From: Venturia oleaginea
Lineage: Eukaryota > Ascomycota > Dothideomycetes > Venturiales > Venturiaceae
DNA length: 64,000 bases
Direction: 5' to 3'
Assembly (NCBI GenBank): GCA_013176395.1
Contig: JABMLP010000024.1
Span: 1 to 64,000 of the forward strand
Of this stretch, positions 12,825 through 59,497 are shown piece by piece. The translations under genes and the position numbers were made by a program. The first letter of the stretch is position 1. Every line of letters begins with the position of its first letter. A model generated the notes under the pieces. It saw nothing but the letters and a program-made list of their open reading frames with translations. It was not told the origin of the DNA and ran no database searches.

Positions 12825-14665
12825 ACGTAATCCACTATCGAGCGGTACACACCACCGAGCGGTACACATTTTCGTATCCTCATCGATTAACCCACAATGC
12901 CCCCACAACTAGTCAATACAAAGGCCCAGAAAGAGGGTCAACTACTCCTTGCTCATGACGCTTATTTGAAAGGCCATTTTCCAAGTATTCGAAAGGCCGC
13001 TGATGCCTGTTCTGTCCCATTTACTTCCCTTGCCTCCCGCCTTCGCGGACGCGCTTCACGCGTCGATTCGCGCCCAAATTGCCAAAAGCTTACGGATACG
13101 GAAGAGGAGGTCGTTGAGCATTGGATACTATCTATGGATGAAAGAGGTTATCCATTGACCGTTACTGGGGTACGCGATGCGGCAAAAATCGTACTCGAGC
13201 AGCGTGTAGGCTCAGATTGCAAAATCGGTGTCAATTGGCCTCAGCGATACATCAAACGCTGCCCTAGCCTCAAATCGCGATATTCACGCCGCTACGTAAT
13301 CAAAGGGCAAGATGCGAAGATCCAGCCCTTATTGGGGCCTGGTTTCGGCTTGTACAAAACACAATCGCTAAATACGGCATCCTCAATAACGATATCTATA
13401 ACTTCGACGAAACTGGCTTTGCAATGGGCCTTGCAAGTACCTCACGCGTAGTTACTGCCTCAGATAGGCGTGGCAGACCCCCTCAATTATAGCCTGGCGA
13501 TCGCGAATGGGTTACGGCAATCGAATCGATCAATGCGCTGGGTTGGAGCCTCCCGCGGATGGTGATCTTCAAAGGCAAGGTACATATATCGTCTTGGTAC
13601 GAAAACAACAATCTACCGCCTGGTTGGACAATCGCTTTGAGTACAAATGGATGGACTAATGACAAGCTTGGATTACATTGGTTAAAAGAGGTTTTCGAGC
13701 CAAATACAGCTGCAAGAAAGGTTGGTAGTTATCGACTACTAATTCTGGATGGCCACGGCAGCCACGCAACGCCAGAATTTGATCAATTTTGTGCAGACCG
13801 GATGATTATTACTCTTTGTATGCCACCGCATTCATCACATCCTCTTCAACCTCTCGATATTGGTTGTTTTTCGGTCCTCAAGCGTACCTACAGCCACCAA
13901 GTCTCGGAATATATGAGGCTTGGCATAAATCATATCGACAAAATTGAGTTCCTTCACGCCTTTAAAATTGCTCGAATTAGTGCCCTCACACTAAGCAATA
14001 TTCAACGCAGCTTCACTGCTGCCAGTCTCGTACCTTTTGATCCAGATCAGGTACTTTCAACCATCCAGATTAGGCCATCTACCCCTACAGCGCCCTTGGC
14101 CGCAAACCAAGAGCAATGGCAACCAGAAACACCTCAGAATCTAACCCAGTTAGAGCTGCAGGTAGCTACAATCAAAGGCTATCTTAAGAGACGTTCAAAA
14201 AGTCCACCAACACCAACAGATCAGGCCCTTAATCAGCTTGTCAGGGGCTGCCAGATCGCGATGCAAGGCGCCGCTTTACTAGCTGCGGAAAATGAGAAAT
14301 TAAGGGCTGCAAATGAGAGGCAGAAGCGAAAGAGGCAACTAAAAAGGAGATATATTAGTCAATCAAGCGCTTTAACTGTTGCAGAGGGCTCAAGCTTACT
14401 TCAACTTTCTAAAGAAGCTTCGGTTATCAGCAGTAACCAGGTTGATCAAGAGCCTTATATTGAGGAAGAACCACCAAATGAAGAGGAGAACATTGTAATT
14501 ACTTGTTTTATTTGTCGCAGTGGTGACCATTTTGCAATCAACTGTCAGAAATATAGATAGGAATATTTAAAAATGAGAGATTTATTGGTGCATAATAGAG
14601 TAATTGATGAGGATACGAAAATGTGTACCGCTCGGTGGTGTGTACCGCTCGATGGTGGATTACGT
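12825..14665 (+). mobile_element. pogo-type (Tc1/mariner) DNA transposon, copy 1
   Basis: 1841 bp with terminal inverted repeats of about 62 bp starting ACGTAATCCAC, flanked by TA on both sides (12823-12824 and 14666-14667). Each terminal repeat contains two direct copies of CGAGCGGTACACA separated by a few bases, probably paired transposase-binding sites. The element encodes a broken transposase (12897-14560) and is inserted inside the repeat cluster, next to LTR-like elements. Confidence 0.92.
12897..14560 (+). pseudogene. broken pogo transposase with C-terminal zinc knuckle
   Basis: The N-terminal 60 residues resemble a psq/CENP-B helix-turn-helix and are followed by a second DNA-binding domain. 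The DDE/D core keeps all three acidic positions: FDETGF, LILDGHGSH and PLDIGCF. The C-terminus has a basic coiled segment and a CCHC knuckle, CFICRSGDHFAINC. Two lesions break it: a small deletion near 13322-13335 that shifts the frame, and a TAG at 13490-13492 where Gln is expected, a C-to-T change in a CpA context that fits RIP. The first frame ends at 13451 and the rest continues in another frame to 14560. It cannot make a full transposase as written. Confidence 0.9.
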
Positions 14666-17634: not shown

Positions 17635-19415
17635 CCACCCAACCGCTCAAAATCTGCCAAGACTTCTAACATTCCTCTTATGTGATTATGTCTGAACAAC
17701 GAAACGCAATATTACTCCAACACGAAGGGAGAATCCAGCTCGCACTTCAAGCCCTCCAAGCCGGCCAATTCCGAAGCCAACGGGCCGCCGCTCGTGCCTT
17801 TGACGTTAAACAGCGAATCCTCTCTGAGCGCGTTATAGGAGTCCCATTTATCCTCGAAACACCACCAAATGGTCGGAAACTCACCCTTAACGAAGAGCAA
17901 ACGCTTGTCCGATACATCCTTGACCTCGATTCGCGAGGATTTGCGCCCCGGCTTTGTGAGGTAGCAGATATGGTGGATAAACTGCTAGCTATACGCGGTG
18001 GAGAGCCAGTGGGCAAAAACTGGGCTGAGAGGTTCGTTACGCGCTCAGATGAGCTTAAGATGGCCTTCAGCCGAGCCAAGGATAGGCAGAGGATACTACA
18101 GGAAGATCCAGAGATTATTGGCGCGTGGTTCAAGCTCGTTGCAGATACCAAAGCCAAGTACGGCGTCCACGACGAGGATACACACAACTTTGACGAGATT
18201 GGCTTCCAGATGGGTGTTATTGGGTCAATGAAGGTCGTTACAGCCTCCGAGAGACGTACAAGGCCGGAACTCATTCAGCCGGGCGATCGCGAATGGGTTA
18301 CGGTTATCCAGAGTATCTGCGCCGCTGGTTATGCAACCCCACCCTTCATTATCTACAAAGGACGCGTTCACATCTCTGCGTGGTACGAGGAGGCAGATAT
18401 ACCGCGCAATTGGAAGCTTTCAGTCTCTGAGAACGGCTGGACAAATAACGCGCTTGGTCTTGAGTGGTTGAAGCATTTTGACGCGCATACAAAGGCGCGG
18501 CAGGTGGGGGGGGTACAGGCTACTTATTTTGGACGGCCATAAGAGCCATCTCAACCAGGATTTTAAGGACTACTGCCTCGAAAATAAGATCCTAACCCTC
18601 TGCATGCCATCGCACTCGTCGCATATACTCCAGCCCCTTGACGTGGTCTGCTTCTCGCCGTTGAAGCGCAAGTACTCCCAACGCATCCGGGACTTGGCGC
18701 CCCGACGCGTGTACCATATTAACAAGGAAGGCTTTCTCCCTGCCTTCAAAGACGCGTTTTTCGACGTGTTTACAAAAGAGAACTGTCAAAAGGCCTTTGA
18801 GACAGTAGGGCTAGTCCCTTATCGACGCGCAGGCGGTATTGGACCGCCAGAACCCCGTCTCCCAGAAACGCCGTGGCAGTCCAAGACTCCAAGTAATGCT
18901 TATGAATTTGGATCCCAATCCAAGCTCGTAAGCGAGTCTTTTACTCGGTCACCAGTTACTGCGCAGGCAGGCTTTTCCCAGCTTGTTAAGGACGCTGAAT
19001 TGATGCTTCACCAAAACGCTCCACTCGTTGCGCGCAACCACGAGCTTGAAGAGCAATTGGCAGTAATAACGAAGCGAAAATCGCGCAAAAGGAAGCGGAT
19101 CCAGCAAGGTGGTACTACAGAGTATGGGACTGCAGCAGTGCAGGTAGCTGCAGAGGCGTCTGTCGCGCCTCAGGGATCGAAGAAGGCTCGTGGTATCGGT
19201 GATCAAGAAATAGCCCCACAACTCAACGGCGCTGTAGGAACTGCGGCGTAACTGGGCATAATGCGCGAACTTGTAAAAAAGATGTCGAGATATCTTCTGA
19301 ATCAGATAGTAGCACGACGGACTTAGGATCTATTGTTGATAGCGAAAAAATTAAAGAGTCGTAACATGAGATGATCGTGCCAAGAAATTTTGAGCGGTTG
19401 GGTGGTGGAGTACGT
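17635..19415 (+). mobile_element. pogo-type DNA transposon, copy 3 (near-intact)
   Basis: 1781 bp. Terminal repeats begin ACGTGTTCCACCACCCAAC on the left and match the complement of the right end with a few changes. TA duplications are at 17633-17634 and 19416-19417. It belongs to the same subfamily as the deleted copy at 45506-46553. Confidence 0.92.
17682..19364 (+). pseudogene. pogo transposase, frame broken in a G homopolymer
   Basis: The first frame runs 17682-18542 and covers the helix-turn-helix domains and the first catalytic motif HNFDEIGF. An eight-G run near 18509-18516 holds one base too many; the rest (DGHKSH, PLDVVCF, coiled C-terminus) is open in the next frame to 19251. A further small deletion near 19210 and a TAA near 19249 remove the frame of the CCHC knuckle, which the related copy 4 retains. 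All three catalytic aspartates are present, so this copy is recently decayed, or the homopolymer shift is a sequencing error. Confidence 0.88.
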
Positions 19416-29230: not shown

Positions 29231-29287
29231 TGCGGCTAATGTGGATTGAACACATGACTTTCAGATTTCATGATGGTGAACCGAAGT

Positions 29288-30258: not shown

Positions 30259-30419
30259 GGCACGATAGTGTAATGGCCAGCACAGTAGATCTCAACATCT
30301 AGTAGCGTAATGGCGCAAATCAGTAGGGATCTGAGGGTTGAAATGGCTTCGGCCGACCGCTCCGGGCGTGTATCCCCCGTAAAGGTCTGCAGTTCTCAGT
30401 TCGATTCTGAGTCGTACCA
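30259..30419 (+). other. tRNA-Glu-like sequence with insert, copy 2
   Basis: GGCACGA at the 5' end and TCGTACC-A at the 3' end pair at 6 of 7 positions. The D arm TAGTG-TAATGGCCAG-CAC is well preserved, the T arm CTCAG-TTCGATT-CTGAG is perfect, and a T6 run follows at 30430-30435. The anticodon arm (TAGAT-CTCAAC-ATCTA) has a six-base loop and cannot be a normal anticodon. About 85 nt are inserted between the anticodon arm and the T arm. The A and B box regions look intact, so transcription by Pol III is possible. Either a pseudogene or a tRNA gene with an unusual insert. Confidence 0.45.
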
Positions 30420-59348: not shown

Positions 59349-59483
59349 GGCACTTTGGCGGAGTGGTTAACGCGTTGGCCTGCTAAGCCAATTCCTTCGG
59401 GAGCGAGTGTAAGAATTTCGTACTAGCACGATTGACCGCGGCTTATACTAATTCTAGACAAGGTTCGAATCACTCAGGTGTCG
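59349..59483 (+). tRNA. tRNA-Ser(GCU) interrupted in the T arm
   Basis: Exonic parts 59349-59408 and 59463-59483 together make 81 nt: acceptor GGCACTT/AGGTGTC (with two G-U pairs), D arm GCG/CGC, anticodon arm TTGGC-CTGCTAA-GCCAA with anticodon GCU, a type II variable arm with TCC-TTCG-GGA stem-loop, T arm GAGTG-TTCGAAT-CACTC and discriminator G. The anticodon loop has no intron. The T-arm 5' strand is separated from its loop by 54 nt (see next entry); read straight through, the genomic sequence cannot form the T arm. A-box and B-box (GGTTCGAATC) elements are present, the latter partly supplied by the end of the insert. A T5 run follows at 59493-59497. Confidence 0.9.
59409..59462 (+). other. 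54-nt spliceosomal-looking intron inside tRNA-Ser
   Basis: Starts GTAAGA, contains TACTAAT 11 nt before the end and a second branch-like TTGAC earlier, and ends CAAG. Size, donor, branch and acceptor match the protein-gene introns of this window. Exact removal restores a perfect T stem. A shift of one base gives the same product, so the boundary is ambiguous by one nucleotide. It does not lie at 37/38, where tRNA endonuclease introns of fungi lie. Confidence 0.75.
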
Positions 59484-59492
59484 CTGTAGATC

Positions 59493-59497
59493 TTTTT
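59493..59497 (+). terminator. Pol III T5 terminator of tRNA-Ser
   Basis: Run of five T ten bases after the tRNA 3' end, the usual RNA polymerase III stop signal. Confidence 0.75.

What the first reader, a model, noticed from the sequence alone, without database searches (positions are those of the whole stretch)
59349..59483. Spliceosomal-type intron in the T arm of a nuclear tRNA-Ser(GCU)
Seen: removing exactly 54 nt (59409-59462) turns the locus into a perfect 81-nt type II tRNA-Ser, with every arm paired and the T arm GAGTG-TTCGAAT-CACTC restored. The removed piece begins GTAAGA, carries TACTAAT 11 nt before its terminal AG, and matches this genome's pre-mRNA introns in size. Known: fungal nuclear tRNA introns lie at 37/38 and are cut by the tRNA endonuclease (as in tRNA-Phe at 29231). 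U6 snRNA, also a Pol III product, has mRNA-type introns in some fungi. Inference: a Pol III tRNA precursor may be spliced by the spliceosome here, or the locus is Pol II transcribed.
Basis: partly seen in the sequence, partly recalled or inferred. Interest (0 to 1): 0.93.

Follow-up and report, generated by a model that had tools for sequence, protein, structure and literature searches.

The report
Messenger-RNA-style introns inside fungal tRNA genes
In this fungus at least 17 transfer-RNA genes, including every tryptophan tRNA gene that could be found, are interrupted by short introns of the kind normally found in messenger RNAs, so making these tRNAs probably needs the mRNA-splicing machinery, which is not how tRNA introns are known to be removed.

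Summary
In detail: removing 59409-59462 (54 nt) leaves a perfect 81-nt tRNA-Ser(GCU), and the removed piece looks like an mRNA intron (GTAAGA, TACTAAT, AAG). It is not a single oddity. In the same genome (Venturia-like dothideomycete) I read 19 such introns in 17 tRNA genes, in the D loop, anticodon stem, variable loop and T arm. 18 of 19 are GT..AG (one AT..AG), 18 of 19 have a well-placed YTRAY branch motif, 18 of 19 are 51-60 nt. None of 19 ordinary 37/38 introns is GT..AG. All three tRNA-Trp genes found and both tRNA-Arg(UCU) genes found carry one, which is hard to square with pseudogenes. All seven U6 snRNA candidates (Pol III too) show mRNA-type intron features. Mature sequences are identical or co-vary across the intron while introns diverge. 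Best reading: spliceosomal introns in functional tRNA genes, removed by the spliceosome, some with tRNA endonuclease as well. No RNA data were available; splicing is inferred. Ten literature searches found no earlier report.

The parts
59349..59408 (+). tRNA-Ser(GCU) exon 1: acceptor 5' strand, D arm, anticodon arm, variable arm, first four nt of the T stem
59356..59366 (+). A box TGGCGGAGTGG (Pol III internal promoter)
59382..59384 (+). anticodon GCT
59409..59462 (+). 54-nt spliceosomal-type intron at T-stem position 52/53, GTAAGA...TACTAAT...ACAAG
59446..59452 (+). branch-site motif TACTAAT (presumed branch A at 59451, 11 nt before the intron end)
59462..59472 (+). B box GGTTCGAATCA, 10/11 to consensus; its first G is the last base of the intron, so the intron does not break the promoter
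59463..59483 (+). tRNA-Ser(GCU) exon 2: last T-stem nt, T loop, T stem 3' strand, acceptor 3' strand, discriminator G
59493..59497 (+). T5 run, presumed Pol III terminator

Best explanation
The insert is a U2-type spliceosomal intron in a functional nuclear tRNA gene, one of at least 19 in at least 17 tRNA genes of this Venturia-like fungus. Pol III transcribes the gene from intact A and B boxes. The spliceosome recognises the 5' splice site, branch site and AG in the precursor, removes the intron and joins the T-stem halves; tRNA endonuclease separately removes the ordinary 37/38 intron where one is present. Shown: sequence anatomy, recurrence, conserved and co-varying exons. Inferred: transcription by Pol III, excision by the spliceosome, function of the product.
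For: 18 of 19 ectopic introns are GT..AG, 18 of 19 have YTRAY with its A 9-18 nt from the end, 18 of 19 are 51-60 nt. Null 0.35% / 0.022%; 0 of 19 of the 37/38 introns parsed in this genome are GT..AG (16 of them). ARAGORN, default: 16 of 17 spliced forms called against 0 of 17 unspliced; with intron search 17 of 17 against 6 of 17. Both two-intron Ser(GCU) genes encode the same mature tRNA (81 of 81) while their introns align at 32/58 and 34/60 and their flanks not above shuffles. Intron-bearing Ser(AGA) C20 equals C59, which has no such intron, over 81 of 81 nt. In the T stem, which the intron splits, 4 of 5 pairs have changes on both sides across 7 distinct Ser sequences. 3 of 3 Trp genes and 2 of 2 Arg(UCU) genes found carry one. 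7 of 7 U6 candidates show mRNA-type intron features by eye. Two window mRNA introns have the same size and motifs.
Against: No RNA evidence of any kind. One intron is AT..AG (Arg CCG, C12) and one lacks a YTRAY motif (Trp C8). Five genes have T-loop introns (57/58, 59/60) that break the B box (best 7-8 of 11); two of these, Ser(GCU) C5 and C19, also have mispaired bodies and look like dying copies. Trp C8 has an acceptor mismatch and the Arg(UCU) C20 copy has A at position 33. Copies without such introns exist for Ser(GCU), Ser(AGA), Gly(TCC) and Arg(TCG), so this window's gene is dispensable in principle. Four of the seven positions (20/21, 29/30, 53/54, 59/60) are also used by non-spliceosomal archaeal tRNA introns (PMC4090602). 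Completeness of the assembly is not stated, and the DNA search finds close relatives only.
Confidence: 0.87

Rival explanations
1. tRNA pseudogenes: the inserts are debris in redundant copies and the genes make no tRNA.
For: A review says D- and T-arm insertions in eukaryotic tRNA genes are mostly in one of many synonymous genes and are supposed to be pseudogenes (PMC4090602). Copies without such introns exist: Ser(GCU) C12, Ser(AGA) C59 and C25, Gly(TCC) C13, Arg(TCG) C34. The C5 and C19 Ser(GCU) copies are degenerate (and reading).
Against: Debris would not be GT..AG in 18 of 19. Bodies are intact or identical to sisters without the intron while introns diverge. All Trp and all Arg(UCU) genes found carry introns.
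Confidence: 0.05
2. Non-canonical tRNA introns cut by the tRNA endonuclease through a bulge-helix-bulge, as in archaea and the alga Cyanidioschyzon merolae.
For: The positions 20/21, 29/30, 53/54 and 59/60 are also used in archaea (PMC4090602). Such introns exist in one red-algal nucleus and in nucleomorphs.
Against: Strict BHB was possible in 1 of 18 introns tested (the 19th was not tested). The pre-tRNA of the window is not unusually structured (z -0.76). This rival does not predict GT..AG, a branch motif or the mRNA-intron size. Caveat: the same test fits 0 of 16 ordinary 37/38 introns, so relaxed endonuclease substrates are not excluded.
Confidence: 0.04
3. The introns are spliceosomal, but the spliced tRNAs come from Pol II read-through or Pol II promoters, not from Pol III.
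For: The spliceosome is coupled to Pol II in general (recalled). Five genes have a broken B box, and 5 of 17 have no T5 run within 45 nt.
Against: An A box in 17 of 17 genes; a B-box match of at least 9 of 11 in the unspliced gene in 12 of 17; T5+ within 45 nt downstream in 12 of 17; no T5 run inside any of the 19 introns, though only about 1 would be expected by chance. U6 shows that Pol III transcripts can be spliced.
Confidence: 0.12

Closest known systems
mRNA-type introns of U6 snRNA genes (Schizosaccharomyces pombe and other fungi; Tani and Ohshima)
   Same: Spliceosomal intron in a small structured Pol III RNA; apparently also present in this genome. [quoted passage not shown]
   Different: U6 sits inside the spliceosome, which explains its introns by reverse splicing; tRNAs do not. 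Here the hosts are tRNAs of several isotypes, with up to two such introns per gene.
Spliceosomal introns in rDNA of ascomycetes and lichens (Bhattacharya et al. 2000; PMC8527467)
   Same: Short spliceosomal introns in non-mRNA genes of ascomycetes; yeast removed them from Pol I transcripts (PMC8527467, passages).
   Different: Pol I rRNA, not Pol III tRNA. Whether this genome has them in rDNA was not tested (the search failed).
Canonical 37/38 tRNA introns
   Same: Introns of nuclear tRNA genes; present in 19 of 38 tRNAs parsed and, by my reading, together with spliceosomal-type introns in all three Trp genes, Gly(CCC), Gly(TCC) C23 and the Arg(TCG/CCG) genes.
   Different: Other position, other length (6-29 nt in the 19), 0 of 19 GT..AG.
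Non-canonical tRNA introns of archaea, nucleomorphs and Cyanidioschyzon merolae
   Same: D-arm, anticodon-stem and T-arm positions, several introns per gene (PMC4090602, passages).
   Different: Those rest on BHB motifs and tRNA endonuclease or are as short as 3 nt; no GT..branch..AG is described in the passages seen.
Introner-like elements of Dothideomycetes (PMC4457414)
   Same: Recent, parallel gain of spliceosomal introns in related fungi (abstract); a possible source of introns entering tRNA genes.
   Different: No near-identical copies of the window intron were found in the genome, so membership in such a repeat family is not shown.

Membership tests
U2-type spliceosomal intron | GT..AG ends at the functional boundary | tested here: met
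   18 of 19, window copy included; one AT..AG
U2-type spliceosomal intron | 5' splice-site and branch-site consensus | tested here: met
   G at +5 in 17 of 19, YTRAY with A 9-18 nt from the end in 18 of 19
U2-type spliceosomal intron | size like the host's mRNA introns | tested here: met
   51-60 nt in 18 of 19, one 89; two placed mRNA introns of 50 and 55 nt, the latter by a narrow margin. Small comparison set.
U2-type spliceosomal intron | removal by the spliceosome through a lariat | not testable with these tools
   needs RNA
Functional nuclear tRNA gene | all arms pair, correct anticodon, conserved positions after excision | tested here: met
   window copy perfect; ARAGORN with intron search of 17 spliced forms, one (Trp C5) with a shifted anticodon. 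Exceptions elsewhere: C5, C19, Trp C8 acceptor, Arg C20 A33
Functional nuclear tRNA gene | expression | not testable with these tools
   no RNA data
Canonical tRNA-endonuclease intron | located at 37/38 | tested here: not met
   52/53 in the window copy
BHB (archaeal / C. merolae type) intron | bulge-helix-bulge at both junctions | tested here: inconclusive
   strict BHB in 1 of 18, but also in 0 of 16 ordinary 37/38 introns
Group I or II intron | catalytic RNA core, hundreds of nt | tested here: not met
   54 nt; at gathering threshold Rfam finds only two tRNAs in the window
Introner-like element | near-identical copies at many genomic sites | tested here: inconclusive
   DNA search with 231 nt around the locus finds only tRNA-Ser paralogues; the tool skips common words and scores only the best candidates

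The most novel reading that the evidence does not exclude
In this fungal lineage the spliceosome is an essential tRNA-processing enzyme. All tRNA-Trp, and all tRNA-Arg(UCU), comes from precursors with a spliceosomal intron; tRNA-Trp precursors need two unrelated splicing systems (tRNA endonuclease at 37/38 and spliceosome in the variable loop); and spliceosomal introns have spread repeatedly through Pol III genes (U6 and tRNA) at sites that mostly spare the internal promoter.
Probability: 0.72. Interest if true: 0.95.

Novelty: new variant of a known kind. Interest (0 to 1): 0.93.

Why it matters
Textbook tRNA introns sit at 37/38 and are removed by a protein endonuclease; spliceosomal introns belong to Pol II transcripts, with U6 and some rRNAs as exceptions. 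A genome in which indispensable tRNAs carry spliceosomal introns would link translation directly to the spliceosome, show that the spliceosome acts on short, highly structured Pol III transcripts, and give a natural test of how introns enter new gene classes (intron gain, reverse splicing, proto-splice sites). It also means that tRNA finders can miss genes: with default settings ARAGORN called 0 of 17 of these in their genomic form. RNA-seq of such a fungus could settle the question at once.

Tried and rejected
Pseudogene-only, BHB-only and 37/38-type readings were considered and set aside (see rivals). Of the window mRNA introns tried, GCN5 gave no reliable intron, and the D-lactate dehydrogenase intron won by 32 to 31 matching words over the next candidates; lipin was clear (44 to 36). 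rDNA introns could not be tested: the RF01960 search failed as busy five times. The tRNA-like hit at window 30259-30419 and loci L086 and L070 were left as unclear.

Tally of nuclear tRNA genes read, by my reading: 17 with ectopic introns, 61 without, 3 unclear. Several of the 61 are doubtful genes (L051, L058, L062, L063, L066, L112). It is not an unbiased census: genes were found by Rfam (58 hits, of which 14 on C38 and 2 on C58 were taken as organellar from their look and dropped), by DNA search with single tRNAs and by short patterns; the Rfam first look scored only 63 of 1697 candidates and missed most of the genes reported here. The control used 16 of the 19 37/38 introns parsed (three Lys introns were left out by oversight); one search repeats it with all 19, result 0 of 19. 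ARAGORN and the statistics cover 16 genes and 18 introns; the C19 gene was found later and added. The covariation count leaves out C19 and merges identical sequences.

Full report
1. The locus. Window 59349-59483 (+) reads as tRNA-Ser(GCU) split after 60 nt by a 54-nt piece, 59409-59462. Rfam tRNA scores 38.9 bits over the whole 135 nt. Without the piece the sequence is an 81-nt type II tRNA with all arms paired; ARAGORN calls it tRNA-Ser(gct), and calls nothing in the unspliced form. The window-wide ARAGORN scan as offered finds no tRNA at all, not even the tRNA-Phe with its 37/38 intron. Three cuts give the same product and one of them is GT..AG. The junction lies in the T stem between positions 52 and 53.

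2. Organism. A window D-lactate dehydrogenase gene is 93% identical to Venturia nashicola; GCN5 is 99% identical to an unnamed protein, with Verruconis gallopava (89%) and Tothia fuscella (87%) the best named. So the genome (46.08 Mb, 61 contigs, unnamed) is taken as a Venturia-like dothideomycete (lineage of V. nashicola). Its completeness is not stated.

3. It is not alone. DNA search with the locus gives other Ser(GCU) genes: C12 without ectopic intron, C5 with an insert in the T loop, and C15 and C23 with two inserts each, one in the anticodon stem (29/30) and one at 52/53. Reading the Rfam hits adds Ser(AGA) C20 and C13 and Gly(CCC) C10 at 52/53, and Arg(TCT) C6 at 53/54. Pattern and DNA searches with reading add Gly(TCC) C23 in the D loop just before A21, Arg(TCT) C20 at 53/54, Arg(TCG) C45 and C59 and Arg(CCG) C12 at 59/60, Trp(CCA) C5, C8 and C60 in the variable loop, and Ser(GCU) C19 at 57/58. 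In all: 19 introns in 17 genes, at seven places (six at 52/53, three each in the variable loop and at 59/60, two each at 29/30, 53/54 and 57/58, one in the D loop). A further 34 stretches fetched by D-arm patterns (34 of the hits listed, chosen by likeness to tRNA) gave 19 matches at E below 0.001 with model R2; only C19 among them has such an intron by reading.

4. Anatomy. Of the 19: 18 GT..AG and one AT..AG (Arg CCG); 18 with YTRAY whose A is 9-18 nt from the end (Trp C8 has none); 18 of 51-60 nt, one of 89 nt; 17 with G at +5 (single values). In random window stretches of the same lengths 0.35% are GT..AG and 0.022% have the branch motif as well; up to six equivalent cuts per gene do not change the picture. 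As a negative control, 0 of 19 ordinary 37/38 introns parsed in this genome are GT..AG in any equivalent cut. For the Trp genes the variable loop does not fix the cut; there the choice rests on a 5-nt loop and on the splice motifs.

5. The mature tRNAs. ARAGORN, default search: 16 of 17 spliced forms called, 0 of 17 unspliced; with intron search 17 of 17 spliced (Trp C5 with a shifted anticodon) and 6 of 17 unspliced, partly with a wrong anticodon. Ser(GCU) C15 and C23 are 81 of 81 identical after excision, while their introns align at 32/58 and 34/60 columns (z 3.2 and 2.3 against shuffles, part of which is shared splice motifs) and their 100-nt flanks not above shuffles (z 0.5 and 0.1). Intron-bearing Ser(AGA) C20 is 81 of 81 identical to C59, which has no intron. 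In seven distinct Ser sequences (C19 left out) 99.4% of pair cells form, 11 of 23 pairs have changes on both sides, and in the T stem, which the intron splits, 4 of 5 pairs do; the single unpaired cell is in C5. Mixing two isoacceptors accounts for some of this; but within Ser(GCU), C17 differs from C15 by two paired changes in the anticodon stem and from C12 also by two in the T stem (read).

6. Indispensable tRNAs. A search with the spliced Trp tRNA finds three genes at E up to 10 and no more; each matches through its 5' half. The same three, and no further Trp, appear in the D-arm pattern search with up to 3 mismatches. All three carry a 12-nt 37/38 intron and a variable-loop intron. Arg(TCT): two genes by DNA search and no other with a TCT anticodon in the pattern search; both carry the 53/54 intron; the C20 copy has A33. 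UGG is read only by tRNA-Trp and AGA needs tRNA-Arg(UCU) (established knowledge). If the assembly is complete for them and no divergent copy was missed, these introns must be removed for the cell to live. C8 has an acceptor mismatch; C60 looks intact.

7. Pol III context. All 17 genes have an A box. With introns in the D loop, at 29/30, in the variable loop, at 52/53 and 53/54 the B box is left whole in the gene (9-11 of 11 in 12 genes); at 52/53 the intron's own final G supplies its first G. With T-loop introns (5 genes) it is broken (7-8 of 11). T5+ lies within 45 nt downstream in 12 of 17 genes; no intron holds T5 (about one of 19 expected, so this is only compatible). U6 snRNA: 7 of 7 Rfam candidates show intron features by eye, GT (once GC) to AG with branch-like sites, in up to two places; the C2 copy looks degenerate. 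So Pol III transcripts of this fungus are presumably spliced anyway.

8. Alternatives. A strict bulge-helix-bulge fits 1 of 18 introns, but also 0 of 16 ordinary 37/38 introns, so only the archaeal-type motif is argued against; four of the seven positions are also used in archaea (PMC4090602). The window precursor is not unusually structured. Pseudogenes: two of 17 (C5, C19) look degenerate, Trp C8 and Arg(TCT) C20 have single flaws, the rest I saw no flaw in.

9. Literature. Ten searches (one search failed) of the held open library listed no report of spliceosomal introns in tRNA genes; only listings were seen for most papers, and subscription papers are not held, so priority is not proven. 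Seen: passages of PMC4090602, PMC8527467, PMC11782384, PMC10484740; abstract of PMC4457414. Bhattacharya et al. 2000 and Tani and Ohshima are known only through citations there and recall.

10. Verdict. Observation confirmed; interpretation supported and extended. The introns have the sequence features of spliceosomal introns; excision by the spliceosome and Pol III origin are inferred.

Noticed in passing
L099-L103, L105, L106 (G000 C23:188483, C16:524005, C34:504708, C12:932536, C12:1178091, C36:59841, C2:1122156): All seven U6 snRNA candidates show mRNA-type intron features by eye in one or two positions; C36 appears to have two introns, C34 a GC..AG intron.
   Followed up: partly
window 30259-30419 (+): tRNA-like stretch (33 bits with R1; 42 bits with R2) with a long insert, 6 of 7 acceptor pairs and no clear anticodon loop; perhaps a tRNA-derived repeat or pseudogene.
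   Followed up: partly
L116 (G000 C12:1294710-1294960): Arg(CCG) gene whose 59/60 intron begins AT instead of GT (ATAAGT..CTGAC..CAG): mutated 5' splice site or a rare AT..AG intron.
   Followed up: no
L086 (G000 C13:551976-552021 -): tRNA-like gene with an apparent CAG anticodon but no long variable arm and an insert of about 70 nt.
   Followed up: no
L062 and L063 (G000 C19:646319 and C60:820814): Two identical Ile(GAT)-like tRNAs with identical flanks as far as shown, the C19 one close to a contig end; perhaps a repeat or a mitochondrial-like insertion.
   Followed up: no
window 13559-14560 and 17682-19251: ORFs that look like DDE transposases of the pogo/Tigger kind (recognised by eye, not searched).
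   Followed up: no
G000 C38 (92 kb): Contig with 14 tRNA hits, many AT-rich; probably the mitochondrial genome (by look).
   Followed up: no
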